From the NCBI GenBank assembly GCA_942159475.1, contig OW804095.1:54898773-54962772 (forward strand): DNA of 64,000 nt, written 5' to 3'. Origin of the DNA: Sthenelais limicola (Eukaryota > Annelida > Polychaeta > Phyllodocida > Sigalionidae). The position numbers and the translations under genes are program-made. The notes beneath the pieces are model-generated. The model had not been told where the DNA came from. It did no database searches and worked only from the letters and a program-made list of their open reading frames with translations. Shown here in pieces: positions 3,069 through 45,040 of this stretch (its first letter is position 1; each line of letters starts with the position of its first letter).

Positions 3069-4040
3069 ACAGGATGGTCTCGTACCAAGGGATTAAAACA
3101 TTTCTGGAAGCAGTCTACTTTCTTCCTTCTTTTACCATATTTTGCCTCTATTTACTTATGGTGTGCTGTGCTCCAATATGGATAAAATTGACGAAACCCT
3201 TCAATCTCAAATGGGTAAGTACCTAGTAATTGAGCTACTGCATGTAGACGTAGACCAGGGTATATTTAATTGCTGCCAATATGCTGAGCCTAAATCGATG
3301 ACAATACCGAATGATGACCTAATGACTTCTATTTATACCATTGAACTAAAGAAATGTATGAGAACGATGAATTTATTCACATTTCCCCCTAATTAAGGCT
3401 TTTCCTTTAGATACACTAAGATACGGTATTCTTTCATTTGTATTCACAGGTGCTTGTCGTTTACAACTTCGTATGCAGTTTCCTGAGCTTCATCACTCTC
3501 GCAGGCTTCATCCACGGAGTCTACAAGGCAGATTTCGTATACCAAAAGAGCAACACAGAGGCATTAAGAAACGTCTACCTACTCTACTGGCTGACGAAAA
3601 ACATTGAGTTATTTGACACAGTGTTTATGATTCTCAGACATCGCCAAAGACAGATATCTTTCCTTCATATCTACCACCATGCATCCATGGTGCTCTTATC
3701 TGACTATTCCTACAGGTATGCAGCGTGGCCGGCAATAGCTGTCATCCTTGGTCTCAATTCTTTTGTCCATGTATTCCTTTATTTTTACTATGGACTAACA
3801 GCATACGAATCAAACAGAACTCCAGCCTGGAAACAGAGGCTAACAGAGCTACAAATTATCCAGTTTTTCTTAGATATGATCTATGCTGCTTATGGATACG
3901 CCCACCATGGGTTCTGTATATATGGTTTCATTTATGGCTTCCTTATGATTTATCTTTTTTCCAATTTTTATTATCATGCATATATCAGAAAGAGAGGCAA
4001 AAATACAAATGTACATATCAGTGATAAAAAGTCTGATTGA
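3069..4040 (+). CDS. ELOVL-family very-long-chain fatty acid elongase
   Basis: Predicted condensing enzyme (3-ketoacyl-CoA synthase) of the ER fatty-acid elongation cycle, using acyl-CoA and malonyl-CoA. Two coding exons are seen: 3074-3214 and 3450-4040, joined in phase 0 across a 235-bp GT-AG intron, giving 243 residues. Family signatures, with residue numbers: KNIELFDT at 97-104, the catalytic histidine box HIYHH at 120-124, NSFVHVFLYFYY at about 150-161, and TELQIIQF at 179-186. Several hydrophobic membrane segments fit a polytopic ER protein, and the C-terminus KKSD matches a KKXX dilysine ER-retrieval signal. The ATG at 3074 lies 5 nt after an acceptor, so a noncoding 5' exon is likely upstream. 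The protein is somewhat shorter than the usual 260-320 residues because the leader before the first membrane segment is short; an extra N-terminal exon cannot be excluded. The ELOVL subtype is unresolved. Confidence 0.9.
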
Positions 4041-4744: not shown

Positions 4745-5105
4745 GTTTTGATTTTAGATCTAGTGCTAATCAGCGCTGATATAAGATATTTTTGTATTCT
4801 TGTGGCAGCCATAGTGAATTTTGAACTTGAAAAAAGACCTTGAAACAGAAAAATAACATCAAAAATGGAATCCTGACACGTTAGAACCTAGTAAAACTGG
4901 CATTATACATAAATCTAGTGCTAATAAGAGCTGAGATATGACTTAAATTTCTTATCTCATAACCAAAGTGGACTGTCTGTCGATTTAATGTCACGATACA
5001 ACACAACGGTCTTGGATTTTGAAATAGAAAAATTATTTCAGAAATGGATTCCTCATGCCTTAAAACCTAGACAAATTATCATCATACATGGATATAGTCC
5101 TAGTG
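4745..5105. repeat. Diverged tandem repeat next to the gag fragment
   Basis: Two diverged copies of a unit of about 180-190 bp. Shared blocks are 'tctagtgctaat..gctgat', 'gaaacagaaaaat..aaaaatgga' and a 'cat.atacat' segment. The second copy breaks off near 5105, where the retrotransposon gag reading frame begins. An inverted, about 90% identical 51-bp piece (4961-5013) occurs again at 8701-8752, so the unit belongs to a dispersed family. Confidence 0.6.
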
Positions 5106-6933
5106 TCGACGACGGTTGATTTCCTCCATTACCCTGCCATTGCTGTTGGTCTTGCTGCCGCCACTGTTGCTGGTTCCCTTGTTGGTTGCCCCAGGGCTGC
5201 TGATTCCAATGATTCGGATTGTTGTTCTGCTGTGGCCATTGGTATTCGTTCTGATGCCAACGCTGGCCCTGATTCTGATCATTTCGGCCCTGATTTTGGT
5301 TTGGTACTGCTGCTATGGCTGTTGCTTGGCTTTTGAACGTGGCCTCTAATCGTGCTATGTTCTTTTCCATGCTCTTTTCCATTGATTTTTCCATGGATTT
5401 CTCCATGGATTTCTCCATAGCCTTCTGCACCTTCTTTAAATCGTCTGCTGTCATTTGATGTGTCGGCGCACCCTTTTCTCTCTGAAGTAGATGTTCCATC
5501 ATTTTAGTCACAGTGAGCGCTTGCTTAGTTAGCAACATCGTTCTGTATCTTGGAAGAAGGGACGCTAAGAAATGTTCTTTTATGTTGTCTGCATCATTCA
5601 CTTCCGCCTTCACCATTCTGGTCTGGAAATCTTTGAAGAAATCTGCCAGTTTTTCCCCTTCGACCATATTCACCTGCTTTAGCGCCTTTCTGTCCATATC
5701 GGACATGTGTTCATATCTGTCCAGAAAAGCTTTCTTCAGATTTACCCAGTTGTCGTATGGGTCCGGAGTCTCCAGTAATCTCAACCAGTGTCGAGCCGAA
5801 CCGCCTAAATACGTTGCAAACTGTCTGCAGAACTGGTTCAAATCATCTGGGTACAATCGTTGTGCTATGGCTGTGCAATCTTCCATGAAGGTTCTTGGAT
5901 CTTCTCCATCATTATTTGAAAACTTTGGGGGTGCTAGTAGGGTCTGGACTCGATTCTCGAACAACGCCATTCCTTCTTCCTCTGCTTGTTCTTCTTCTTC
6001 TTCTTCTTCTTGAATCACGATCTCGGGTCTATGTTGTCCGTTTTCCCGTGGCGGTGGCCCGTTGAGTACAGGATCGGCGTTCTGGTTTTCTACTATGGGC
6101 GCTGGATGCCCGTTCTGATGTTGGGGCACGCCGTTTATTCCCTGTGTCTGTTGTCGGCCGTGTGCTTCAGCGTTCTCCCGGGCTCGCTGTAGTCTTTGCT
6201 CGTGTTCCTCTTCTTCTGCCTGTATTCTGTCGGCTTCTGCTTGTCTCTGTCTTTCTGCTCTATCTTCTTCTTCCTGAGCTATTCGCCGTCTGTCTTCCTG
6301 TTCTTCCTCGGCCAACTGTCTGTCTCTCTCTCTCTGCTGTTCGCGCTGTAATTCTTCCTGCCGTTGTTGTTCCAGCTCTCTTTCTTCCTGTTCCTGCTCT
6401 TGCTGGAGCTGTTCTTGTTGTTGCTTATTTAACGGCTGGTTTAGCTCTGCGTCTCTGAGTTTTCGCAATTCGGCACCCAATTCTTTCTGTAACTGCCTGG
6501 CAGCTTCGTCTATTCCACGTGGTTCTGTTTCCTGCTTCTCCTGATTTTTTCGTGGCGTGACTGCCCAAACCCCTTGGTGGGTATCTTCTTCTGCCAGTAT
6601 GAGGGTTTCTTCCTCGGCCACTAATGTATCTTGGCTGTCTATGCTGCTTTGGTCGTCTATGTTTTCTAATTCTTCTTCCGATTCGTGCCCTGCTCGAGCC
6701 AAATGTTCAAATTCCCCGTGAATTATATCGGCTTTATCGTGTAGTTTTTCTGTTATTTTCTCTGCGACCAGTAATTTTGTATCTTCGACTTGTTGTTCTT
6801 TCTCTGCCTTCTTGCTTAGCTGCGGAGCTATGTCTGGAATGCCCGCGTCAGTGTCCTTGAACCCTCCTCTAGTCACACAATTTAATCTGAAATTTGCTCT
6901 TGATTTAGGTCTCGCCTTTTCATCGTTCGCCAT
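5053..6933 (-). pseudogene. Ty3/gypsy-like gag, 3'-truncated LTR retrotransposon
   Basis: A 626-codon frame on the minus strand. Residues from about 80 to 300 are extremely Glu/Gln/Arg-rich and should form coiled coil. Residues from about 320 to 480 look like a Retrotrans_gag capsid region, with hydrophobic and Trp spacing such as 'YLGGSARHWLRLL' and 'DNWVNLKKAFLDRYE'. Then come five tandem MEKS repeats and a Gln/Asn/Trp-rich tail. No CCHC zinc knuckle, protease, reverse transcriptase or integrase follows. The last ~17 codons are encoded by the flanking repeat, so the frame is chimeric and the element was cut at about 5105. The 5' LTR and primer site lie just upstream. A domesticated gag is possible, but the broken tail argues for a dead fragment. 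Confidence 0.8.
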
Positions 6934-17640: not shown

Positions 17641-20600
17641 GTTGTTCTAATACATGCTGTGCATGCTTCTCGTTGCCTTGTCTGCTTCATCAGCAGTCTT
17701 CCTCTTGCCAGGTTTCGGGGCTTAGACTGTACCTGGTGTTCTTCAAGAGGTGCCCCAGCAGAGCTGATCAGGCTCCACTTAGCGACTGCAGGTTTCCAGG
17801 GCCCGCGCCGTAAGTGAACCCCCTTCCACCTACAGTCATGGCCATTCCAGATGTTATCCTCCAAGGCAATGCCGTTCTTTTGAAGTTGTGGTATAGGCTA
17901 TAAGCGCTATGGTGTGTGTCCAGGCTTGTCTCCTATGCTGTCTCACATCCATTTCTGGACTGCATTCCACAACTTAACCTCCTGTGCAGCCCCATGGGTG
18001 TTCCGGACCGTGTTTCATGCCCGCAGAGCCCACCGGCAAAAGCTGCACAATTTGAACCCAGTCTCTCCCGGTGTCACTAGTCTTTCCCAGTTGTCAGCTA
18101 GCCTATTCCTAGTCGTCAGTCAGCCTTTCCCAACAGTCAGCCGTAGCAGGTTCGGTTGTTCTAATACATGCTGTGCATGCTTCTCGTTGCCTTGTCTGCT
18201 TCATCAGCAGTCTTCCTCTTGCCAGGTTTCGGGGCTTAGACTGTACCTGGTGTTCTTCAAGAGGTGCCCCAGCAGAGCTGATCAGGCTCCACTTAGCGAC
18301 TGCAGGTTTCCAGGGCCCGCGCCGTAAGTGAACCCCCTTCCACCTACAGTCATGGCCATTCCAGATGTTATCCTCCAAGGCAATGCCGTTCTTTTGAAGT
18401 TGTGGTATAGGCTATAAGCGCTATGGTGTGTGTCCAGGCTTGTCTCCTATGCTGTCTCACATCCATTTCTGGACTGCATTCCACAACTTAACCTCCTGTG
18501 CAGCCCCATGGGTGTTCCGGACCGTGTTTCATGCCCGCAGAGCCCACCGGCAAAAGCTGCACAATTTGAACCCAGTCTCTCCCGGTGTCACTAGTCTTTC
18601 CCAGTTGTCAGCTAGCCTATTCCTAGTCGTCAGTCAGCCTTTCCCAACAGTCAGCCGTAGCAGGTTCGGTTGTTCTAATACATGCTGTGCATGCTTCTCG
18701 TTGCCTTGTCTGCTTCATCAGCAGTCTTCCTCTTGCCAGGTTTCGGGGCTTAGACTGTACCTGGTGTTCTTCAAGAGGTGCCCCAGCAGAGCTGATCAGG
18801 CTCCACTTAGCGACTGCAGGTTTCCAGGGCCCGCGCCGTAAGTGAACCCCCTTCCACCTACAGTCATGGCCATTCCAGATGTTATCCTCCAAGGCAATGC
18901 CGTTCTTTTGAAGTTGTGGTATAGGCTATAAGCGCTATGGTGTGTGTCCAGGCTTGTCTCCTATGCTGTCTCACATCCATTTCTGGACTGCATTCCACAA
19001 CTTAACCTCCTGTGCAGCCCCATGGGTGTTCCGGACCGTGTTTCATGCCCGCAGAGCCCACCGGCAAAAGCTGCACAATTTGAACCCAGTCTCTCCCGGT
19101 GTCACTAGTCTTTCCCAGTTGTCAGCTAGCCTATTCCTAGTCGTCAGTCAGCCTTTCCCAACAGTCAGCCGTAGCAGGTTCGGTTGTTCTAATACATGCT
19201 GTGCATGCTTCTCGTTGCCTTGTCTGCTTCATCAGCAGTCTTCCTCTTGCCAGGTTTCGGGGCTTAGACTGTACCTGGTGTTCTTCAAGAGGTGCCCCAG
19301 CAGAGCTGATCAGGCTCCACTTAGCGACTGCAGGTTTCCAGGGCCCGCGCCGTAAGTGAACCCCCTTCCACCTACAGTCATGGCCATTCCAGATGTTATC
19401 CTCCAAGGCAATGCCGTTCTTTTGAAGTTGTGGTATAGGCTATAAGCGCTATGGTGTGTGTCCAGGCTTGTCTCCTATGCTGTCTCACATCCATTTCTGG
19501 ACTGCATTCCACAACTTAACCTCCTGTGCAGCCCCATGGGTGTTCCGGACCGTGTTTCATGCCCGCAGAGCCCACCGGCAAAAGCTGCACAATTTGAACC
19601 CAGTCTCTCCCGGTGTCACTAGTCTTTCCCAGTTGTCAGCTAGCCTATTCCTAGTCGTCAGTCAGCCTTTCCCAACAGTCAGCCGTAGCAGGTTCGGTTG
19701 TTCTAATACATGCTGTGCATGCTTCTCGTTGCCTTGTCTGCTTCATCAGCAGTCTTCCTCTTGCCAGGTTTCGGGGCTTAGACTGTACCTGGTGTTCTTC
19801 AAGAGGTGCCCCAGCAGAGCTGATCAGGCTCCACTTAGCGACTGCAGGTTTCCAGGGCCCGCGCCGTAAGTGAACCCCCTTCCACCTACAGTCATGGCCA
19901 TTCCAGATGTTATCCTCCAAGGCAATGCCGTTCTTTTGAAGTTGTGGTATAGGCTATAAGCGCTATGGTGTGTGTCCAGGCTTGTCTCCTATGCTGTCTC
20001 ACATCCATTTCTGGACTGCATTCCACAACTTAACCTCCTGTGCAGCCCCATGGGTGTTCCGGACCGTGTTTCATGCCCGCAGAGCCCACCGGCAAAAGCT
20101 GCACAATTTGAACCCAGTCTCTCCCGGTGTCACTAGTCTTTCCCAGTTGTCAGCTAGCCTATTCCTAGTCGTCAGTCAGCCTTTCCCAACAGTCAGCCGT
20201 AGCAGGTTCGGTTGTTCTAATACATGCTGTGCATGCTTCTCGTTGCCTTGTCTGCTTCATCAGCAGTCTTCCTCTTGCCAGGTTTCGGGGCTTAGACTGT
20301 ACCTGGTGTTCTTCAAGAGGTGCCCCAGCAGAGCTGATCAGGCTCCACTTAGCGACTGCAGGTTTCCAGGGCCCGCGCCGTAAGTGAACCCCCTTCCACC
20401 TACAGTCATGGCCATTCCAGATGTTATCCTCCAAGGCAATGCCGTTCTTTTGAAGTTGTGGTATAGGCTATAAGCGCTATGGTGTGTGTCCAGGCTTGTC
20501 TCCTATGCTGTCTCACATCCATTTCTGGACTGCATTCCACAACTTAACCTCCTGTGCAGCCCCATGGGTGTTCCGGACCGTGTTTCATGCCCGCAGAGCC

Positions 20601-23292
20601 CACCGGCAAAAGCTGCACAATTTGAACCCAGTCTCTCCCGGTGTCACTAGTCTTTCCCAGTTGTCAGCTAGCCTATTCCTAGTCGTCAGTCAGCCTTTCC
20701 CAACAGTCAGCCGTAGCAGGTTCGGTTGTTCTAATACATGCTGTGCATACTTCTCGTTGCCTTGTCTGCTTCATCAGCAGTCTTCCTCTTGCCAGGTTTC
20801 GGGGCTTAGACTGTACCTGGTGTTCTTCAAGAGGTGCCCCAGCAGAGCTGATCAGGCTCCACTTAGCGACTGCAGGTTTCCAGGGCCCGCGCCGTAAGTG
20901 AACCCCCTTCCACCTACAGTCATGGCCATTCCAGATGTTATCCTCCAAGGCAATGCCGTTCTTTTGAAGTTGTGGTATAGGCTATAAGCGCTATGGTGTG
21001 TGTCCAGGCTTGTCTCCTATGCTGTCTCACATCCATTTCTGGACTGCATTCCACAACTTAACCTCCTGTGCAGCCCCATGGGTGTTCCGGACCGTGTTTC
21101 ATGCCCGCAGAGCCCACCGGCAAAAGCTGCACAATTTGAACCCAGTCTCTCCCGGTGTCACTAGTCTTTCCCAGTTGTCAGCTAGCCTATTCCTAGTCGT
21201 CAGTCAGCCTTTCCCAACAGTCAGCCGTAGCAGGTTCGGTTGTTCTAATACATGCTGTGCATGCTTCTCGTTGCCTTGTCTGCTTCATCAGCAGTCTTCC
21301 TCTTGCCAGGTTTCGGGGCTTAGACTGTACCTGGTGTTCTTCAAGAGGTGCCCCAGCAGAGCTGATCAGGCTCCACTTAGCGACTGCAGGTTTCCAGGGC
21401 CCGCGCCGTAAGTGAACCCCCTTCCACCTACAGTCATGGCCATTCCAGATGTTATCCTCCAAGGCAATGCCGTTCTTTTGAAGTTGTGGTATAGGCTATA
21501 AGCGCTATGGTGTGTGTCCAGGCTTGTCTCCTATGCTGTCTCACATCCATTTCTGGACTGCATTCCACAACTTAACCTCCTGTGCAGCCCCATGGGTGTT
21601 CCGGACCGTGTTTCATGCCCGCAGAGCCCACCGGCAAAAGCTGCACAATTTGAACCCAGTCTCTCCCGGTGTCACTAGTCTTTCCCAGTTGTCAGCTAGC
21701 CTATTCCTAGTCGTCAGTCAGCCTTTCCCAACAGTCAGCCGTAGCAGGTTCGGTTGTTCTAATACATGCTGTGCATGCTTCTCGTTGCCTTGTCTGCTTC
21801 ATCAGCAGTCTTCCTCTTGCCAGGTTTCGGGGCTTAGACTGTACCTGGTGTTCTTCAAGAGGTGCCCCAGCAGAGCTGATCAGGCTCCACTTAGCGACTG
21901 CAGGTTTCCAGGGCCCGCGCCGTAAGTGAACCCCCTTCCACCTACAGTCATGGCCATTCCAGATGTTATCCTCCAAGGCAATGCCGTTCTTTTGAAGTTG
22001 TGGTATAGGCTATAAGCGCTATGGTGTGTGTCCAGGCTTGTCTCCTATGCTGTCTCACATCCATTTCTGGACTGCATTCCACAACTTAACCTCCTGTGCA
22101 GCCCCATGGGTGTTCCGGACCGTGTTTCATGCCCGCAGAGCCCACCGGCAAAAGCTGCACAATTTGAACCCAGTCTCTCCCGGTGTCACTAGTCTTTCCC
22201 AGTTGTCAGCTAGCCTATTCCTAGTCGTCAGTCAGCCTTTCCCAACAGTCAGCCGTAGCAGGTTCGGTTGTTCTAATACATGCTGTGCATGCTTCTCGTT
22301 GCCTTGTCTGCTTCATCAGCAGTCTTCCTCTTGCCAGGTTTCGGGGCTTAGACTGTACCTGGTGTTCTTCAAGAGGTGCCCCAGCAGAGCTGATCAGGCT
22401 CCACTTAGCGACTGCAGGTTTCCAGGGCCCGCGCCGTAAGTGAACCCCCTTCCACCTACAGTCATGGCCATTCCAGATGTTATCCTCCAAGGCAATGCCG
22501 TTCTTTTGAAGTTGTGGTATAGGCTATAAGCGCTATGGTGTGTGTCCAGGCTTGTCTCCTATGCTGTCTCACATCCATTTCTGGACTGCATTCCACAACT
22601 TAACCTCCTGTGCAGCCCCATGGGTGTTCCGGACCGTGTTTCATGCCCGCAGAGCCCACCGGCAAAAGCTGCACAATTTGAACCCAGTCTCTCCCGGTGT
22701 CACTAGTCTTTCCCAGTTGTCAGCTAGCCTATTCCTAGTCGTCAGTCAGCCTTTCCCAACAGTCAGCCGTAGCAGGTTCGGTTGTTCTAATACATGCTGT
22801 GCATGCTTCTCGTTGCCTTGTCTGCTTCATCAGCAGTCTTCCTCTTGCCAGGTTTCGGGGCTTAGACTGTACCTGGTGTTCTTCAAGAGGTGCCCCAGCA
22901 GAGCTGATCAGGCTCCACTTAGCGACTGCAGGTTTCCAGGGCCCGCGCCGTAAGTGAACCCCCTTCCACCTACAGTCATGGCCATTCCAGATGTTATCCT
23001 CCAAGGCAATGCCGTTCTTTTGAAGTTGTGGTATAGGCTATAAGCGCTATGGTGTGTGTCCAGGCTTGTCTCCTATGCTGTCTCACATCCATTTCTGGAC
23101 TGCATTCCACAACTTAACCTCCTGTGCAGCCCCATGGGTGTTCCGGACCGTGTTTCATGCCCGCAGAGCCCACCGGCAAAAGCTGCACAATTTGAACCCA
23201 GTCTCTCCCGGTGTCACTAGTCTTTCCCAGTTGTCAGCTAGCCTATTCCTAGTCGTCAGTCAGCCTTTCCCAACAGTCAGCCGTAGCAGGTT
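17641..23292. repeat. 514-bp satellite, 11 head-to-tail copies
   Basis: The unit starts 'gttgttctaatacatgctg' at 17641, 18155, 18669 and so on every 514 bp, and stops at 23292: 5652 bp, within two bases of 11 full units. Copies appear almost identical; I found one clear substitution, G to A at 20749 in copy 7. The unit is clearly more GC-rich than its surroundings. Each full unit holds a 137-codon plus-strand and an 89-codon minus-strand open frame. Because 514 is not a multiple of 3, no frame runs through the array, and neither product resembles a known family. The unit does not look like snRNA, 5S rRNA or tRNA. The homogeneity implies very recent amplification, gene conversion or an assembly effect. 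Confidence 0.97.
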
Positions 23293-36989: not shown

Positions 36990-37690
36990 GTTCTAAATTA
37001 CCCCCTCATCTAATATACCCCCGGTAATTTAGACCTTAGGTTTAAATGACCCCCTCTAGGTTCAAATTACCCCCCTTTGTTTCATTGATAATCTTACACC
37101 AGCAATTCTAAAAGAACATATATCAGAAGCTCATATCTAATGCTTATGGGGAATGAATTAAAGATTACTTTGAGGGTCTAATAATGAAATTTATTGTAAT
37201 TCTGTATAATAACCCTTTTTTCTTTCTATTTATTTAAACTGAATATATCATTGTAACTCAATGACTATGGAAGCTTATTGCAAATAAAAAACAAACCAAC
37301 TAACATCTTTCCAGTTCTGTCTATCAGGCCTGTACTGTATTCATTTTTTACTTCATTCATTATTACTTTTATTGTCATAATTAAAAGAATCAATGTTTCA
37401 ATGGGGGTACATCAGTACTAGATTGGTAACACATACTGGGGGTATATTAGACCTAGGTTTAGTTTCCCCTTTAGGGGTACTTTGAACCTGGTGGGCGTAC
37501 ATTTGACCTAGGTCTAATATACCCCGGGGGTACATTGAAACTGGAGGAGGTATATCCAACCTAGGTCTAAAGTACCCCCGGGGGTATATTGGACCTAGGT
37601 CAAATGTACCCCCGGTACATTAGACCTAGGTTAGTTATACCGGGGGGTACACCTGATGGGGGGGGGGGGGTACATTAGACCTGCTACACA
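36990..37690. mobile_element. Fold-back element of CTAGG/TACCCCC words
   Basis: About 700 bp. The left 110 bp ('ctaatatacccccgg', 'gaccttaggttta', 'caaattacccccc') are matched in inverted orientation by the right ~250 bp, where units of about 50 bp repeat around the palindromes GACCTAGGTC and TACCCCCGGGGGTA. An ordinary AT-rich spacer separates the arms. There is no ORF. It looks like a non-autonomous fold-back transposon with expanded ends, including a 13-G run at 37658-37670. Confidence 0.65.
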
Positions 37691-37978
37691 TGCTTAATAT
37701 TTATACAAATACTTAATTAAACCGTTACCTTTATTATATAAACGTATCATCATAACTATTACATAATTATAGTAATAAGGCTTTGCCTAGCTTACATTAT
37801 GGATTCTCGAGGTGATTGGTCCTTTGCTACGAATTATGAACTGATGATGACAATCCAGAAAATACTAACCCAAACTAAATAATTGCTAGCTATTGATGCC
37901 ATGCCATGGCAAGCCTAATTAGTTCTCACATTATTAAAGTCAGAGCAACAACAATCACAAATAGATTCTGGCGTATGA
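37691..37978. repeat. Host repeat interrupted by the LINE, left part
   Basis: Sequence just before the LINE poly-T (about 37895-37976: 'ccatgccatggcaagc', 'gattctggcgta') is homologous to 44840-44925 on the far side. The right side then continues with a second related block. The LINE therefore inserted into a diverged tandem or dispersed repeat. Confidence 0.6.
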
Positions 37979-38188
37979 TTTTTTTTTTTTTTTTTTTAAA
38001 CAGCTTTATTCAATATGTCAACAAATCCTGATTCTCTGGGTCGATAACACATGAGATATACATCGAACCCTTTTCCTCTCCGTAGATAAACCATGTTCTA
38101 TACAATAAGAGTGAACCTATATACATATTAGGTTTTTTGATGGGGAGTTTGTTAAAACAATATTTTACTAGGTAATGGTGGAAGAGTA

Positions 38189-41100
38189 TTAACTGCTTTG
38201 TTCTATTAAACTACTTATATCAGCATGGACCTTTCTCCAGGCCTTTTTCCACTCATTCGAAGTATTTGCTATTTTATTTTGATATAACACACTTCTACAC
38301 CTGCTATCTAGATCAGCAATAAGGTGATTAAACACAAGGTCACCTTTGTAAAACAGTTTCTGCCTGTGAATAAAAGATTTTACTTGCAATATGATCCAGT
38401 TTACTATTTTTTCTCTAATATTGTTAGAGCTCATACCGAAGAGGATATCCTCTGGTTTTATGATTACTTTGTTATTCAATATCTGGAACATTGGCTTGTC
38501 GTTTCTTACAGAGTTAAGATGAGGCATTGAGCATATACATTGGATTATGTTTTCCCATAGCCTTTTAGTTTTGGGACAATCTACTAAAAAGTGGCGAATG
38601 TCATCTCTCTTATTACAAAAAGAACATGTATTTTCGTCAATAATCCTTTTGTTTTTCAAGAACTCATTGCACGTGATTGTTCTATGTAATACCCTGTATT
38701 GGAAATTTTGTAGTCTTGTCTCGGTTGTACACTTATATGGATGAACAAATATCTTTTTCCAGTTAAGGCAATTCATTTCTTCGTCGTTAAAACTCAAAAT
38801 GTCTTTCCAACCATTCAACTTTTCTACTTTAGGTTTCCTTTTCGTTACCAGAGCATTGTATATCATTTTTGCACTTGCAGATCTTATATTCACAATTGTA
38901 TTACTGATTTTAATGTTAATCGAATCATCACTGGGCGATTCATACTCATTTCTAACCATCTTCCACCACTCGACAGGTATGGAGGATATTAGATCCTTTC
39001 TTCCTTCATAAGAAGATTCAATATTGAAGTGTTTTTTAAGCTCTGATATCGACATAAATTGTTTTTTTTCATTTAAGACATCACCAAACACAGAAATGCC
39101 ATTTTTTTCCCACGTCTCATAAATGAACATTTTGCCTTTGAACTTAACATGACGATTGAACCATATTCTCTCTTTCAGCACATCGTTAATATTGTTTGGT
39201 TTGATATTATAGTAATACCTGTTCCAAACTTCGTATACATCTTTGTAAAAATGATTCAATGTGGATATTGGCTTATACCTAGATAAAATGATGCTTTCAA
39301 TATTTCTTCCAGCGTCAGTTTCTACTGCTCTGAAATTATTGGAATTTTTATACTCTAGAAGCAGTTGTACCCATTTTAGTCTATTTGTTTCGACGATTTC
39401 TTTAATACATCTCAGGCCAAGGCCTCCATTTTCAACCTTTTGTACCAAAAAATCGGTACTTATTTTATTCGAGGGTCCCTTCCAAATGAAATTTGAGATG
39501 ATTTTTTCGATTTCTTTTTGGGTTTTACATGGGATGGGGACACAGGCGAGAGTGTATTGAAAGAGTGGGAGTACGAATACGTTTACAACCAATATTCTCC
39601 CTTTCATCGTTAAAGACCTTTTAGACCATAATCTTAACACATTCTTCATCTTGTACATAAGGTGGGAGGTGTTCTCCTTTACAATTTGTTTCTCATCTCT
39701 TGGAGAAGTGAGGGTGACACCTAGTATTTTTATCTGTTTCTCCCAGGAGAAGTTTAACACTTCTTTGTTAGTGAGAGTAATGTTTCCCACATTGAAGCCC
39801 TTAGTCTTCTTGGGATTAAGTTTTAAACCTGATGCAAGATAGAAGTCGTTTATTACTCTAACAGTTTTAACTAAGGATAATTCATTTTTCACAGAAATTG
39901 TTAAATCGTCGGCGAATTGAGTAATTTTGGATTCATAGTCCCCGAAGAAAATACCTTCGATTTCTTTATTTTCTCTCAGGCTTATGGCTAACATTTCCAC
40001 AGCTATGGTAAACAAAATCGAGGAGATGGGGTCCCCCTGTTTTACGCCACGGTTGATATTAAACCATTTGGAGATATGACCATTATTACAAAATGTGGCT
40101 TTGGAATTATGTAACAACATTTTGATCCAATTTCTAAATTTTTCTTCAATGTTATAAGATTTTAACGCTCCATCTAAAAACTCCCAACTCACAGAGTCAT
40201 AGGCTTTAGTGAAGTCGAAAGATACAACTAAACCTTGAAGTTGATTTTTTTCTAAAAAGGAAATCGTATCATCTATTTTTCTGACGGCTATTCCGATATT
40301 TCTATTCTTAATAAACCCAAACTGGTCTTCTCCTATCATGTCATGCATGTATAGTTCCAGTCTTCTAGATATGACTTTTGATATAATTTTATAATCGATA
40401 TTCAATAAGGTTATCGGTCTCCAGTTGCTCAGATATGTAATATCAGAGTCTTTTTTTGGAATGACACATATTAGACCTCTACTTTGACTATCACACATTT
40501 TTCCTGTTTCGAGGCAATGCTTGAACATGGCCATGAAGATATCGTGGATGGCATACCAGAAAAACTTGTAGAATTCGGCGGTAAAACCGTCACATCCAGG
40601 AGATTTGTTATTTTTTAAGTGATCTTTTACAATTTTAGTGACTTCCTCATATTCAACTGGGCGAGATATAATATCATTATCTATTTCGTCCAATTTAAAA
40701 GCATTGTTTTTACTCAAAAACTCAGCTTGACACTCTTGGTCTATCTCCACTTTGTCGTACAACTTCTTATAGAATTTTTCACCTTCTTGCAATATTCTTT
40801 TGGAACCTCTTATCAATTCATTATCTACATGCAATTGATTGATGACCTTTTTTTCAGCGTTGTACTTTTCTAGTGAGCAGAAAAATTTTGAAGGTTTCTC
40901 GCCTTCAATGGCCCATTTCGCCCTGGATCTGACCAGAGCGCCCTGAGCCTTGTCTAATTCCATTTTTTCTAGTATTTTCAGGGATTTTTTTCTGTTTTCT
41001 AGATCGCTCTCTGATAGGTTATTTTTTTTGTCTAAGGCGATAATTATTTGCTGATGTTCACTATTCATGTTCTTTCTAGCATATGCTTTATCTTTACTCC

Positions 41101-41989
41101 TTTTAATAGCAGCTTGTCTTACTTTCATCTTAAAAAGTTCCCATCTAATGATAGGTGAAATATCTTCGTCTACTTTTTGAAAAGCTAACAATTCAACACT
41201 TGCTATAAAATTTTCGTCTTCCAGTAATCTAGCGTTAAGCTTCCAGAAACCTTTACCTCTCTGTTCAGCCGAGAAGGCTGTAGATATCTTGATTATTTTA
41301 TGATCTGATAAAGAGAAAGATTCTGATGTACATTCTACAACATAATTCATCATGTTGTTCGATAGGAATATGTAGTCGAGTCTAGATACAATTAAGTTTC
41401 TACACCATGTTTTTGGTGGATTACCACCATTTTTTGCATAAATCGCATCACATAAATCGAGATCACCTATAAAATCTTGGAGTTGAACACTAGACTTCAG
41501 GTGAGGTTTGTATGTAATATCAGCGTTAAGGTCACCCATTATAACCAGTTCGTCAGTGATTAGATCGTTGACAATACCAACAATCTCTTTCAAAAGAATC
41601 TCTTGGCTTTTTACTTTATCAGCGGTAGGGGCATACATATTGAAAACAGTGGTTGTTTTACCATCTACATTAAGCACAATATATTGCCATCTACCATTTA
41701 CATCTTCTTTGTTCGCAGTTACATAATTCTTGATCTTATTAGAAACCAGTAACATCACCCCTCTGGCTGCAGAGGTGCCATGAGACATATACATTGAGCC
41801 ATGCCATTGCATTGGCCAGAATTTTTCGGACTCTACACATGAATGCGTTTCTTGTAACGCTATTATGGCATTTTCTTCTTTTTTAAATAAATCAAAAATA
41901 GCTTTTCTTCTAACAACGCCATTAAGGCCGCTTGTGTTAAAAGATATGTAATTTAGAATTTCTTTCTTATCATCAGAGATTTGCTCCAT
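38189..41989 (-). CDS. LINE ORF2: APE endonuclease and reverse transcriptase
   Basis: 1266 residues. It nicks target DNA and reverse-transcribes the element RNA from the nick (target-primed reverse transcription). Residues ~12-240 form an AP-like endonuclease, with Asn18 in SFNTSGL, Glu47 in LQETHS, Asp152/Asn154 in GDLNAD and Asp229-His230 in SLSDHKI. Residues ~455-760 form the reverse transcriptase: 'NNKSPGCDGF', 'NWRPITLLN', 'SFDFTKAYDSV' with the first catalytic Asp, 'RGVKQGDPIS', and the catalytic FADD at about 692-695. A long C-terminal region ends in a Cys-rich motif CxxC-x7-H-x4-C at 1122-1138, typical of the L1 group. There are no stops or frameshifts and all key residues are present. 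The ATG at 41989 lies 50 nt after the ORF1 stop, so translation probably uses reinitiation. Confidence 0.95.
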   Translation of the reverse strand: MEQISDDKKEILNYISFNTSGLNGVVRRKAIFDLFKKEENAIIALQETHSCVESEKFWPMQWHGSMYMSHGTSAARGVMLLVSNKIKNYVTANKEDVNGRWQYIVLNVDGKTTTVFNMYAPTADKVKSQEILLKEIVGIVNDLITDELVIMGDLNADITYKPHLKSSVQLQDFIGDLDLCDAIYAKNGGNPPKTWCRNLIVSRLDYIFLSNNMMNYVVECTSESFSLSDHKIIKISTAFSAEQRGKGFWKLNARLLEDENFIASVELLAFQKVDEDISPIIRWELFKMKVRQAAIKRSKDKAYARKNMNSEHQQIIIALDKKNNLSESDLENRKKSLKILEKMELDKAQGALVRSRAKWAIEGEKPSKFFCSLEKYNAEKKVINQLHVDNELIRGSKRILQEGEKFYKKLYDKVEIDQECQAEFLSKNNAFKLDEIDNDIISRPVEYEEVTKIVKDHLKNNKSPGCDGFTAEFYKFFWYAIHDIFMAMFKHCLETGKMCDSQSRGLICVIPKKDSDITYLSNWRPITLLNIDYKIISKVISRRLELYMHDMIGEDQFGFIKNRNIGIAVRKIDDTISFLEKNQLQGLVVSFDFTKAYDSVSWEFLDGALKSYNIEEKFRNWIKMLLHNSKATFCNNGHISKWFNINRGVKQGDPISSILFTIAVEMLAISLRENKEIEGIFFGDYESKITQFADDLTISVKNELSLVKTVRVINDFYLASGLKLNPKKTKGFNVGNITLTNKEVLNFSWEKQIKILGVTLTSPRDEKQIVKENTSHLMYKMKNVLRLWSKRSLTMKGRILVVNVFVLPLFQYTLACVPIPCKTQKEIEKIISNFIWKGPSNKISTDFLVQKVENGGLGLRCIKEIVETNRLKWVQLLLEYKNSNNFRAVETDAGRNIESIILSRYKPISTLNHFYKDVYEVWNRYYYNIKPNNINDVLKERIWFNRHVKFKGKMFIYETWEKNGISVFGDVLNEKKQFMSISELKKHFNIESSYEGRKDLISSIPVEWWKMVRNEYESPSDDSINIKISNTIVNIRSASAKMIYNALVTKRKPKVEKLNGWKDILSFNDEEMNCLNWKKIFVHPYKCTTETRLQNFQYRVLHRTITCNEFLKNKRIIDENTCSFCNKRDDIRHFLVDCPKTKRLWENIIQCICSMPHLNSVRNDKPMFQILNNKVIIKPEDILFGMSSNNIREKIVNWIILQVKSFIHRQKLFYKGDLVFNHLIADLDSRCRSVLYQNKIANTSNEWKKAWRKVHADISSLIEQSS

Positions 41990-42039
41990 GACTTATTCTG
42001 TTTACCTTACATTAAATAAAATATCTATTAGTTATTTCT

Positions 42040-43563
42040 TTAACCGTCGACTTCGGACAGTTCTTCATCCTCCATGTCCTCTTCTTCGCTGGATTCTTCT
42101 TGCGAGGTTTCGTTCTTTAGCAACTCCTCTCTTACTTCCATCCACGACTTGCCAAGGAGATTACCATTTGGAGGCCAGGCTGCAATATTGTAGATCTCAG
42201 GATCATCGAGGGGGATCCCTACACCCCATACTTTGTCCTTGGGAGAGGCTTCGGCGATCTCTTTGGAACCGGTATAGATGAGGTAGTCTCTAACTTCGAG
42301 GTTGTCTCGTACTTTTGCTCTAAGTGCAGACATGAGGAATTCTTTTCTGTTCTGCTCCCATTCTTCTTTGTATTCTGTGACAGCTCCCATAAACGCCTTG
42401 GCATCTTTGGGGTTGTGGGTGTTTAGGGCCATCCTGGTCTTGTCTGCATCTTTACCTGTTTGGGCTCTTTTGTAATATAAGAACTGTTCAATATTATCAA
42501 ACTCGTATCCTTCGCATCTGAAGGGGGCGTAATAGTGATTTGAGAGGGGGTTGTTTTCCGTGAAGAAGGCAACCACCTCATCATTTTCCCTCTTTGTGAG
42601 TTGTGACAAACGTACAGGAGAGGGGACTGCTGCAAGTTCATTGTGCCTATACCAGCGGTCTACATACACGCTGCCTCTACTTACTTTGGCTTTGGTGTAA
42701 CCAATTTTTAGGGCTGCTTCCATGATGACTTTTGCCCTCGCAGACCTTTGTCGCATGAAGTATGGGACGTCTTTTTTAATGAAGATTTTCCCCTTCTCAG
42801 GCTCATGTTGTTTCAGTTTTAGCCTTGCTTCGTATACTTCAACAGCGTCTTTTGTCTGGTAGAATTCAACTTTCAACGGTGCGTCTCTAAAGGTGTTTAC
42901 CCTATATGCTTTTTTTACCTTGATGGTGGGTAGGACTAGCAGGTTCTGTGTAATGTTCAGAATTATGTTCAGAGAGTCGGTGTCGTCTTCATGTTCAGTG
43001 GATTTTATTCCCACAAAAACCAAGTTCTTATCCAATTTAGCCATTTCATCTCTTACCAGTTGTTCATCTTTTAGAATTTCCATCCTCTTCTTCTCTATGT
43101 AGCAGATATTCTTGTTCACTCCTTGCTTCTGTTTTAATATCTTAATATCCGCTTTGCATTCTCTCATTTCCCTTTTGAAATTTGCTCTTTCTCTGTCTCT
43201 TTCGATATTTCCTTCAATGACATCGTCCATATGCATGGCGGTGTCGTTAACCACTTCCTTCATTAGCTCCATATCTTTGAGAGCATCGTAAAGTTGGGTG
43301 AAGCTCTTTTGGTTCGTGTCTGCAATTTCTTTTATCATTTCTGACATATCCCCGTTCAGGTTGTATTTTGGGGGGTCTTTATGCGCCCTGGGAGGGATTT
43401 TTTTTGCTTTCGCTGCTCTGGGCTTACCTCTTCCAGCCATGATTTTCTTTTTAGAGGGATTTGAATCTGGGGATTCACTATGGCTTCTTTTACTCCTTCT
43501 ATTCACAACTAGGGCGAAATCTGAAGCCTTTATGTCTTCGGTACTCCCGGTGGTGGAAGTCAT
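42040..43563 (-). CDS. LINE ORF1: RNA-binding protein with C-terminal NADAR domain
   Basis: 507 residues. Residues 22-58 are very basic (nucleic-acid binding or nuclear signal), ~75-175 are coiled coil (probable trimerisation), ~178-245 resemble an RRM ('KNLVFVGI', 'LKVEFYQ'), and ~255-305 match the C-terminal RNA-binding part of L1 ORF1p ('FIKKDVPYFMRQR'). Residues ~331-482 are a complete NADAR (YbiA-like) domain. It has FFTEN-NPLSN (339-342), the expected catalytic Glu359 in NIEQF, Lys365, PKDAK, Trp402, TGSKEIAEASP (431-441), WGVG (446-449) and NLLGK (468-472). Family members hydrolyse N-glycosidic bonds of riboflavin intermediates or remove ADP-ribose from guanine. An acidic tail (about 485-507) follows. 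The domain is in frame with no break, so it is a true part of the protein. Confidence 0.92.
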   Translation of the reverse strand: MTSTTGSTEDIKASDFALVVNRRSKRSHSESPDSNPSKKKIMAGRGKPRAAKAKKIPPRAHKDPPKYNLNGDMSEMIKEIADTNQKSFTQLYDALKDMELMKEVVNDTAMHMDDVIEGNIERDRERANFKREMRECKADIKILKQKQGVNKNICYIEKKRMEILKDEQLVRDEMAKLDKNLVFVGIKSTEHEDDTDSLNIILNITQNLLVLPTIKVKKAYRVNTFRDAPLKVEFYQTKDAVEVYEARLKLKQHEPEKGKIFIKKDVPYFMRQRSARAKVIMEAALKIGYTKAKVSRGSVYVDRWYRHNELAAVPSPVRLSQLTKRENDEVVAFFTENNPLSNHYYAPFRCEGYEFDNIEQFLYYKRAQTGKDADKTRMALNTHNPKDAKAFMGAVTEYKEEWEQNRKEFLMSALRAKVRDNLEVRDYLIYTGSKEIAEASPKDKVWGVGIPLDDPEIYNIAAWPPNGNLLGKSWMEVREELLKNETSQEESSEEEDMEDEELSEVDG

Positions 43564-44637
43564 GCCGCGCGGGAACTTTAGTTGGGTGTTGTAACGGGTT
43601 GTTCCGGCTCTGAGTCAATGTTAAAGTATGTAAGAACTTTGTGTTTTGCTATTTTCTTGTCTTCCGGCAAGATGGCGGGTGCAGACTTCCGGTTTACGTA
43701 TCACACTTAGTCACTTTTTATTTAAACGTCTAATAAACCATTTCTGGTGTTATGTGGCAATATTTGCCACGTTTCTATGATAATTTTGACTATTTACTCG
43801 ATATTGATGTGATATTCACGATGTTGTTCAAACTTTTAGCTGATTTACACGAGGTGTTTACTTTTCACCGAACGTTCCTGGGTGAAAGAGAAAGGCAGGG
43901 CTCGGTGGCGCCACCTGATGGGTGATACGTGTATTTCCTTCGTTCGGAGGTGGTGTTTGGCACGCCACCTGTTGTGGAACTAGGAACGCTTTCTTCGAAC
44001 AGTTATTTCTTATTAACAGCTAAGCACAGGCATGATATAGATATTATTTCGTGCGATAAGACAACTTTTTCCTTTTAGGTCCACATTTTCATGTACATAT
44101 TGTTCCAGGTTGTGTGATTACAGTTTATATTCCTAGTCTGGTTGAGTCGGAGGTGGGCTCCCACGAGCTGCCTAAAATGGCTTCCACGTGAGGGTTCCTC
44201 CAGTGTTCATGAGTCGGGGTGAGGAAAATATTCCTGAGCCTGTGACAAAATGTCTGCAAACAGTTTTTCACTACTCGATGAGGATACAGGTCCTATGATA
44301 CATGTACACACTTAAATCCTTAGTTCATATGTGAGTAACTCGTGAGTTCCTATGTAGAAACAGGTGTCTGTGTTATCGACTCGAGTGAGCGATAAAGCAA
44401 GATGGCGGTAAATCGATTGACCACTGAGCGGGAAGATTAGAAAAAGTTAATTTCTCCGTCTTTTCCGTTTGTCAGGTGTATAATCGTTATTCCTTATGAT
44501 CTTGGGTTGTTTATGAAGCTTTCACGCTATGAGCGGAAAGATTCCTGCGTTCCAGTCCTGAAAAAAAGAAATAAACTTGGGGAGCGATGCTCCAGTACGT
44601 TTTCTCTCAATCTCGGCTGACCGGAAGTCCTGGTATA
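43564..44637 (-). promoter_or_regulatory. LINE 5' UTR with presumed internal promoter
   Basis: About 1.07 kb between the inferred 5' end and the ORF1 ATG. It shows no open frame of note and is richer in CpG than the flanks, with several 'cttccgg'/'ccggaag' words (ETS-like), at 43687 and 44632 for example. In L1-type elements this region carries the internal promoter; here that is inference. Confidence 0.5.
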
Positions 44638-45040
44638 TTTTATATCTAAAATTGTCAGTTGGATTCATGATATAGTATGTGTAATGGCTTATAACAACTT
44701 TACCTTAAAACCGAAAATGCGTTATCCCGATAATTATTCCATTATGTTGTATCAGAAGTAGCATTTTTGTCAAATACAATGAGCTCAGCCAAAATCCTAA
44801 CATCTTTTTTCATTAAGTGGGATCTTAAACTATGCTCATATATATACCATGCCATGGCATGCTTAATTACCTCGTGCGTTATCACAGTCAGAACAACAAA
44901 CCATCGCAGATAATAGATCCTGGCGTAGTATGTATTTTACATCTAAAAGTGTGCACCGTATCTTACTAATTGTCAGATGAATTCGTGATGTAGTATAATA
45001 GCGTGTTATAACAACTTTATGTCAAATGTACACCACAGGC
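44638..45040. repeat. Diverged host repeat on the 5' side of the LINE
   Basis: 44638-44715 ('atatctaaaattgtcag', 'cataacaactttacc'-like) and 44930-45025 ('acatctaaaagtg', 'ttataacaactttatg') are diverged copies of one block. 44840-44925 is the homologue of 37895-37976. Together they show a repeat unit of about 290 bp that was split by the LINE. Confidence 0.6.

What the first reader, a model, noticed from the sequence alone, without database searches (positions are those of the whole stretch)
42040..43080. LINE ORF1 protein carries a complete NADAR domain
Seen: residues ~331-482 of the intact ORF1 show every NADAR block (PLSN, NIEQF Glu, PKDAK, TGSKEIAEASP, WGVG, NLLGK) after ordinary L1-type ORF1 parts. 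Known: NADAR/YbiA enzymes cleave N-glycosidic bonds, and some remove ADP-ribose from guanine in DNA as antitoxins to DarT-type enzymes. Inference: the retroelement may carry its own de-ADP-ribosylase to protect its RNA/cDNA or to counter a host PARP-type restriction of retrotransposition. I do not know whether this fusion has been described before.
Basis: partly seen in the sequence, partly recalled or inferred. Interest (0 to 1): 0.88.

Follow-up and report, generated by a model that had tools for sequence, protein, structure and literature searches.

The report
Jumping gene carrying an ADP-ribose eraser
A LINE jumping gene carries in its first protein an enzyme domain of the NADAR family, known elsewhere to strip ADP-ribose from guanine bases; its relatives in the same genome keep the domain under selection, so it likely cleans the element's own RNA or DNA copy of a chemical block.

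Summary
ORF1 (window 43563..42040, minus, 507 aa) has a NADAR domain at residues 336-481 (PF08719, E 2.9e-25), in a complete 6,654-bp L1-type LINE (37977-44630) with an intact ORF2. It is no one-off: 80 of 86 ORF1 matches listed in the host genome run through it. All 39 intact ORF1 copies read, in 8 subfamilies, keep both catalytic Glu equivalents and the Asp, and NADAR omega is 0.06-0.18 in 10 of 10 chosen pairs. A NADAR ORF1 also sits on a LINE whose ORF2 is not L1-type. The fusion is already in print in one passage, for Pacific oyster Tx1 LINEs (PMC12477816). Its function is untested. NADARs remove ADP-ribose from guanine in DNA and RNA and clams have guanine ADP-ribosylating activity, so I prefer an eraser of a host-made guanine mark. 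Against it: all LINE NADARs read lack an Arg that contacts the pyrophosphate, the catalytic Lys is often Arg, and no Scabin-like transferase was found in this genome (control silent, inconclusive).

The parts
37977..44630 (-). complete L1-type LINE, 6,654 bp; 5' end at 44630, poly-A tail ending at 37977
   Evidence: Boundaries where near-identical copies stop matching: L089 99.4% over 6,654 bp, L091 98.2% over 6,650 bp, L090 99.5% over 6,273 bp from a 5'-truncated start. L089 and L091 have clean target-site duplications at these element ends. The window flanks, joined in a script, align (77-79%) through to an uninterrupted copy of the surrounding repeat.
43564..44630 (-). 5' untranslated region of the element
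   Evidence: between the mapped 5' end and the ORF1 start
42040..43563 (-). ORF1, 507 aa: N-terminal and coiled-coil-like part, RRM+CTD-like part, NADAR, acidic tail
   Evidence: profile match to LINE-1 ORF1p; NADAR; acidic tail by eye
42598..43056 (-). RRM+CTD-like region, residues about 170-322 (bounds approximate)
   Evidence: hhalign of the pre-NADAR parts of the L1-type ORF1s with those of four other NADAR ORF1s: probability 95.4, E 1.7e-8 over 145 columns; LINE-1 ORF1p RRM entry 2w7a matched by profile, E 0.0014
42121..42558 (-). NADAR domain, residues 336-481; mapped positions E359, R366, K389, W402, R406, E438, D443, W446
   Evidence: PF08719 E 2.9e-25; residue map against 8bau
38189..41989 (-). 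ORF2, 1266 aa: endonuclease and reverse transcriptase, zf-RVT
   Evidence: Exo_endo_phos 3.1e-11, RVT_1 1.4e-41, zf-RVT 6.1e-7; LINE-1 ORF2p 8e-82

Best explanation
The ORF1 protein of this complete L1-type LINE ends in a NADAR domain that keeps nearly all published catalytic residues under purifying selection, and it likely works as a built-in hydrolase that would strip ADP-ribose from guanines of the element's own RNA or cDNA. Shown here: domain, residues, selection, copy number, and the presence of a NADAR ORF1 on a LINE with a non-L1-type ORF2. Inferred: by analogy with LINE-1 ORF1p, the coil and RRM-like part would coat the element's RNA in its ribonucleoprotein and so hold the NADAR next to the template and new cDNA. 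Inferred: the mark to be removed would be N2-guanine ADP-ribose laid down by a host enzyme acting against foreign or single-stranded nucleic acid; CARP-1 of clams makes this mark on DNA and DarT1 on ssDNA, but I know of no such defence in animals. Removing it would let reverse transcription and translation proceed, much as a NADAR antitoxin rescues a cell from DarT1.
For: NADAR call and residue map. Equivalents of E43, K75, W89, R93, E125 and D130 in 39 of 39 intact copies, W133 in 38 of 39, position 50 always basic (R 30, K 9). NADAR omega 0.06-0.18 in 10 of 10 chosen pairs, simulation P at most 0.004. In 11 of 11 pairs the NADAR has a lower nonsynonymous proportion than the ORF1 N-terminus. 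A NADAR ORF1 also precedes a non-L1-type ORF2 (L129/L135). From print: a eukaryotic NADAR removes guanine-ADPr from DNA (PMC11543638, passages and sections 12 and 13 part 1); of the hydrolases tested, only NADARs removed it from RNA (PMC11833690 passages); guanine-N2 DNA ADP-ribosylating activity in six edible clams, CARP-1 described as lacking a receptor-binding domain (PMC11209040 passages); NADARs also in annelid/bivalve picornaviruses and invertebrate nidoviruses (PMC9503650 passages).
Against: I found no activity test of any retroelement NADAR. P. nicotianae R79, which contacts the pyrophosphate, is absent in 39 of 39 copies (G 12, A 15, S 12) and in all 14 LINE NADARs. Catalytic K50 is Arg in 30 of 39; in E. 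coli C7 NADAR the matching K95R kept in-vitro hydrolysis but not rescue. Outside the L1-type group R93 is not kept (6 of 6 differ) and one of the 14 has Asn at D130. The Scabin-like ART family (PF22596) gave 0 matches in this genome (16 candidates scored); the control rang nowhere, so this is inconclusive.
Confidence: 0.45

Rival explanations
1. The NADAR handles the element's RNA in a way unrelated to a host attack: it binds or processes an RNA end, cap or NAD-derived adduct, helping RNP assembly or nuclear export, as the essential NADAR protein SNA-3 works with the cap-binding complex in nematode trans-splicing.
For: [quoted passage not shown] PMC12477816 suggests RNA processing for retrotransposon NADARs (passage). 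The position inside an ORF1p-like protein fits equally well.
Against: NADARs were inactive on phosphate-end ADP-ribose of RNA (PMC11833690 passages). No direct evidence in LINEs.
Confidence: 0.27
2. The domain is a binding module that has lost or changed its catalysis, for example an ADP-ribose or nucleotide reader that tethers the RNP to ADP-ribosylated host chromatin at DNA breaks.
For: Loss of R79 in all LINE NADARs read and K50 to R in most of the L1-type copies.
Against: Both glutamates and the Asp are kept in 39 of 39 intact L1-type copies and the second Trp in 38. A pure reader would not need all of them.
Confidence: 0.15
3. It counters a host PARP that marks ORF1/ORF2 protein or RNA.
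For: ZAP/PARP13 restricts human L1 through its RNA and RNP (PMC4441479 abstract).
Against: A section heading of that paper says the zinc finger domain is sufficient (outline), so no ADP-ribose transfer is implied there. NADARs showed no or negligible activity on PARP10-modified RNA and none on phosphate ends.
Confidence: 0.08
4. A captured passenger without a role in transposition (neutral fusion or metabolic housekeeping such as YbiA-type removal of riboflavin intermediates).
For: E. coli YbiA acts on riboflavin intermediates.
Against: Strong purifying selection in and between subfamilies, and retention in very diverged ORF1s, speak against a neutral passenger.
Confidence: 0.05

Closest known systems
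NADAR-bearing ORF1 of Tx1 LINEs in Crassostrea gigas (Repbase; noted in PMC12477816, passage read)
   Same: Same fusion: YbiA-family NADAR in the ORF1 of L1/Tx1-type LINEs.
   Different: I could not compare sequences: Repbase is not held and Tx1 membership was not tested. Here the anatomy, copies, selection, residues and a non-L1-type carrier are added.
NADAR in Pol of one Gypsy lineage of Ectocarpus (PMC12477816, passage)
   Same: Retroelement with a conserved NADAR domain.
   Different: LTR element; the domain lies in Pol, not in ORF1; brown alga.
DarT1-NADAR (DarTG1) toxin-antitoxin system (PMC11543638)
   Same: NADAR as guanine-ADP-ribose eraser; two acid positions and a basic residue.
   Different: No transferase gene in this element (one search shows only ORF1 and ORF2 among its ORFs of at least 150 aa); no antitoxin role shown; Glu at the E125 site as in YbiA and P. 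nicotianae, where C7 uses Asp.
SNA-3 of nematodes (PMC9303266 passages)
   Same: Animal NADAR protein acting in RNA metabolism.
   Different: Host gene with three NADARs, not a mobile element; its biochemical substrate is unknown.
Human LINE-1
   Same: ORF2p 8e-82 over endonuclease and RT; ORF1p-like coil and RRM by profile; poly-A tail, and target-site duplications in sister copies.
   Different: LINE-1 ORF1p has no NADAR (recalled; NADARs are reported absent from vertebrates in passages of PMC9303266, and PMC11833690).

Membership tests
NADAR superfamily (PF08719) | profile match over the curated cut-off | tested here: met
   89.9 bits against 35.1, residues 336-481; listed for 8 of 8 subfamily members
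NADAR superfamily (PF08719) | conserved acids (P. nicotianae E43 and E125) plus D130 and W133 | tested here: met
   E359, E438, D443, W446; E, E and D in 39/39 and W133 in 38/39 intact copies
NADAR superfamily (PF08719) | YbiA-like fold | not tested
   Structure prediction accepted no jobs
Active guanine-ADPr NADAR hydrolase (functional class, as P. nicotianae and E. coli C7) | phosphate-contacting Lys (K50) | tested here: inconclusive
   Arg366 here; R in 30 and K in 9 of 39 copies. C7 K95R kept hydrolysis in vitro but not rescue
Active guanine-ADPr NADAR hydrolase (functional class, as P. nicotianae and E. coli C7) | R79 next to the pyrophosphate (a contact in the P. nicotianae structure; not shown to be required) | tested here: not met
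   M-G here; R79 absent in 39/39 copies, present in 36/40 viral NADARs compared
Active guanine-ADPr NADAR hydrolase (functional class, as P. nicotianae and E. coli C7) | guanine-ADP-ribose hydrolase activity | not testable with these tools
   needs an enzyme assay
L1-type LINE | ORF2 with endonuclease and RT closest to LINE-1 among solved structures | tested here: met
   LINE-1 ORF2p 8e-82, R2 5.4e-21
L1-type LINE | coil and RRM ORF1 | tested here: met
   profile of eight diverse NADAR ORF1s matches LINE-1 ORF1p at 3.5e-5; a profile of the eight L1-type ORF1s alone did not, nor did single sequences
L1-type LINE | poly-A tail and target-site duplication | tested here: met
   poly-A in the window copy; clean 12-14-bp duplications in L089, L091, L096; in the window copy the duplication is imperfect
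Tx1 clade | RT phylogeny with Tx1 references | not tested
   no eukaryotic LINE reference set is held; Tx1 is a label from the literature lead
DarT-NADAR toxin-antitoxin | linked ADP-ribosyltransferase gene | tested here: not met
   the element holds only ORF1 and ORF2 among ORFs of at least 150 aa

The most novel reading that the evidence does not exclude
Retrotransposons of at least two distant LINE kinds share an ORF1 with a built-in guanine ADP-ribose eraser, the first retroelement counter-defence against nucleic-acid ADP-ribosylation. Its spread, together with NADARs in RNA viruses of invertebrates, points to an undescribed animal immune system that ADP-ribosylates foreign RNA or cDNA.
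Probability: 0.33. Interest if true: 0.9.

Novelty: new member of a known kind. Interest (0 to 1): 0.62.

Why it matters
If LINE NADARs erase ADP-ribose from nucleic acid, there should be a host writer that marks foreign RNA or cDNA in invertebrates, a defence so far known from bacteria (DarT). The element makes this testable: the candidate substrate, the residues and a retrotransposition read-out are all at hand. The fusion itself is in print for oyster Tx1 LINEs. What is added here is copy-level evidence of selection, the residue pattern shared by the LINE NADARs read (loss of R79), and a NADAR ORF1 on a LINE with a non-L1-type ORF2.

Tried and rejected
One-off capture: rejected by 86 ORF1 matches (85 of 5,036 first-look candidates scored), 80 of which reach residue 486 or beyond, and by 150 of 150 scored PF08719 matches over the cut-off, from 5,561 first-look candidates. 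Both counts are lower bounds.

Target-site-specific insertion, suggested by a repeat flanking the element: rejected, since sister copies sit in different targets and the flanks look like the two halves of one interrupted repeat copy.

Donor of the domain: not resolved. In the protein tree (58 rows) the L1-type NADARs form one group (100/100), five NADARs of other ORF1s another (99/92), and P0001 joins the L1-type group (89/88, not starred). Against that last grouping, P0001's part before the NADAR is closer by profile to the other ORF1s (probability 94.8) than to the L1-type ones (24.4). One clade of all 14 LINE NADARs is not rejected (p-AU 0.254, 56 rows after two long ones were dropped), so one capture or two remains open. 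The viral-contig scan with ORF1 confirmed none of 42; with a NADAR alignment 82 of 113, 80 kept. Phage records: 626 of 50,697 hold a NADAR relative, all under 60% identity.

NG86 dN/dS between subfamilies: synonymous sites saturated, so I used only the nonsynonymous proportions; simulation-based counts on mostly closer pairs replaced it. The 10 pairs were picked by me from the 39 copies and some share a sequence, so they are not independent.

Host writer: PF22596 (Scabin-like) in the own genome, 0 matches among 16 scored candidates, control silent; not evidence of absence. The accession was recalled and its name confirmed by the tool's answer.

Not obtained: own-genome searches with ORF2 and with the pre-NADAR part alone, so I could not ask how many related LINEs lack the NADAR; structure prediction (four refusals).

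Dropped before counts: of the 48 own-genome loci, seven (L081, L083-L088) were duplicates of larger fetches, and L093 and L094 were left out of the 39 because a stop codon interrupts ORF1. L134's ORF1 is broken; only its second piece, as it stands, entered the tree. The tree used every second one of the 80 viral loci.

Full report
1. What is there. The window holds one complete LINE on the minus strand, 44630 (5' end) to 37977 (end of the poly-A tail), 6,654 bp. Its limits come from near-identical copies elsewhere in the same genome: L089 (99.4% over 6,654 bp), L091 (98.2% over 6,650 bp) and L090 (99.5% over 6,273 bp, 5'-truncated) stop matching within a few bases of the same points. Sister copies have target-site duplications directly at these ends (L089, L091; L096 of a sister subfamily). 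In the window copy the duplication is imperfect, but the flanks, joined in a script, align at 77-79% through to an uninterrupted copy of the surrounding repeat at about 44844-45019. ORF1 is 43563..42040 (507 aa), ORF2 41989..38189 (1266 aa). ORF2 has endonuclease, RT and zf-RVT and is L1-type: LINE-1 ORF2p 8e-82, R2 next at 5.4e-21. Tx1 membership was not tested.

2. The NADAR domain. PF08719 covers ORF1 residues 336-481, 89.9 bits, E 2.9e-25. 8bau and YbiA are found by sequence alone. Mapped on P. nicotianae numbering (residue roles from PMC11543638, sections 12 and 13 part 1): E43 is E359, K50 is R366, K75 is K389, W89 is W402, R93 is R406, E125 is E438, D130 is D443, W133 is W446; G78/R79 are Met392/Gly393.

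3. The rest of ORF1. No Pfam LINE ORF1 family is listed for any single sequence, and a profile of the eight L1-type ORF1s found only NADAR structures and one chance-level hit. A profile of eight more diverse NADAR ORF1s, however, matches LINE-1 ORF1p (2ykp, positions 127-240, 3.5e-5; the RRM entry 2w7a at 170-240, 0.0014), upstream of the NADAR.

4. Copies in the genome. The own genome (1.13 Gb, 161 contigs, unnamed) gave 86 ORF1 matches from 85 scored of 5,036 first-look candidates, 80 of them running to residue 486 or beyond, i.e. through the NADAR. I fetched 40 regions. 39 intact ORF1 copies (35 distinct proteins, the window's included) fall in 8 clusters at over 90% identity, 43-100% identical to the window's ORF1. 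E43, K75, W89, R93, E125 and D130 equivalents are kept in 39 of 39, W133 in 38 of 39 (one Cys). Position 50 is R in 30 and K in 9. G78 is Met in 39 of 39. R79 is lost in 39 of 39 (G 12, A 15, S 12).

5. Selection. Ten chosen pairs (nine within, one between subfamilies) were compared with neutral simulations: NADAR omega 0.06-0.18 in 10 of 10, simulation P at most 0.004 in each. The N-terminal 135 residues have a higher omega in 8 of these 10 pairs (up to 1.13) and a lower one in 2; the RRM+CTD part ranges from 0.00 to 0.57. Over 11 pairs between subfamilies, synonymous sites are mostly saturated, but the nonsynonymous proportion of the NADAR is below that of the N-terminus in 11 of 11 and below that of the RRM+CTD part in 9 of 11. 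Pairs share some sequences, and copies were chosen for an open frame.

6. Not only L1-type LINEs. A PF08719 search of the own genome scored 150 of 5,561 candidates; all 150 pass the cut-off at 104-119 bits, higher than the window's ORF1 (90 bits). I fetched six of these 150 places and five adjoining stretches. L129 encodes a 648-aa ORF1 with NADAR (7.4e-33) followed by a 972-aa ORF2 (L135) with endonuclease and RT whose best solved relative is R2 (4.3e-15), with LINE-1 at 8.7e-13: not L1-type. This is the only one of these ORF2s that I compared with solved RTs. L133 with L138 has the same layout (NADAR 5.8e-30; ORF2 974 aa, RVT_1 9.3e-30). L131/L136 (NADAR 1.5e-28) and L132/L137 (2e-30) have endonuclease ORFs downstream that run off the fetched stretch, and between them an ORF that looks SGNH-esterase-like by eye but has no Pfam hit. 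The parts before the NADAR in the L1-type ORF1s and in these four are homologous by profile (hhalign 95.4, 1.7e-8, 145 columns). RRM-type ORF1s are common among LINEs (recalled), so this alone does not show that the fusion was made once.

7. Relatedness. L1-type NADARs 100/100; the five NADARs of the other ORF1s (L129, L131-L134) 99/92; P0001 (a 442-aa ORF1-NADAR protein from a 2.2-kb public contig, 26% identical) with the L1-type group at 89/88, although its pre-NADAR part is nearer to the other ORF1s (hhalign 94.8 against 24.4). One clade of all LINE NADARs is not rejected (p-AU 0.254). All 14 LINE NADARs lack R79, while P. nicotianae, YbiA, P0002 and 36 of 40 viral ones have it. This fits either one capture or a shared substrate. 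Outside the L1-type group R93 is not kept, and L133 has Asn at D130. The protein database, searched three times, gave only P0001 and P0002.

8. Mechanism. Biochemistry in print: NADARs, a eukaryotic one included, remove ADP-ribose from guanine in DNA (PMC11543638). Of the hydrolases tested they alone remove it from guanosine in RNA, and they leave phosphate-end marks (PMC11833690 passages). They show no or negligible activity on PARP10-modified RNA (PMC13036486 passages). Guanine-N2 DNA ADP-ribosylating activity was found in six edible clams, and CARP-1 is described as lacking a receptor-binding domain (PMC11209040 passages). Annelid/bivalve picornaviruses and invertebrate nidoviruses also carry NADARs (PMC9503650 passages). 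I therefore prefer an in-cis guanine-ADPr eraser in the LINE RNP as counter-defence (0.45). Steps inferred: RNA binding by ORF1, existence of a host writer, substrate. Against: R79 loss, K50 to R, and no Scabin-like ART found in the genome (control silent, so inconclusive). The main rival is an RNA-processing role as for SNA-3 (PMC9303266 passages).

9. What is known. The fusion is in print in one passage: Repbase Tx1 LINE ORF1s of Crassostrea gigas and one Gypsy lineage of Ectocarpus have YbiA-family NADARs, role unclear, RNA processing suggested (PMC12477816, passages). I found no functional test of a retroelement NADAR and no mention of one on non-L1-type LINEs in the searches (listings seen: 20 of 104, 1 of 1, 20 of 211, 10 of 677, 3 of 3, 8 of 37; open-access library only). 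The window element is thus a new member of a known kind; the selection evidence and the wider spread are the additions. PMC10294476 (bivalve TEs) has 0 occurrences of NADAR in its main text (passages seen). PMC11125620 and PMC4441479 were seen as abstract and outline only.

10. Limits. No structure model, no RT clade assignment against references, host unnamed, no count of related LINEs without NADAR.

Noticed in passing
L130 (G000:C1:94854500-94856500), NADAR ORF at 749-1234 minus: A stand-alone 162-aa NADAR ORF (109.2 bits) beside an ORF that looks like a viral/Polinton-type DNA polymerase by eye but has no Pfam hit; three places have a 162-aa open frame, so it may ride on another mobile element.
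   Followed up: partly
L131/L136 and L132/L137: NADAR ORF1, a middle ORF resembling an SGNH-type esterase by eye, and a separate endonuclease-bearing ORF: a three-ORF layout.
   Followed up: partly
window 18060-23272: The same two TRF rows occur 11 times, every 514 bases: a tandem array of about 514-bp units.
   Followed up: no
window 5053-6933 (-): 626-aa Q/E-rich ORF that looks like a retrotransposon Gag by eye.
   Followed up: no
window 37474-37640: Direct and inverted copies of a short repeat next to the LINE.
   Followed up: no
window 3438-4040 (+): 200-aa open frame that looks like part of a fatty-acid elongase (ELOVL) by eye.
   Followed up: no
phage collection: 626 of 50,697 phage records hold a relative of the LINE NADAR (all under 60% identity); the 20 rows listed are nearly all 'hypothetical protein' or unannotated.
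   Followed up: no
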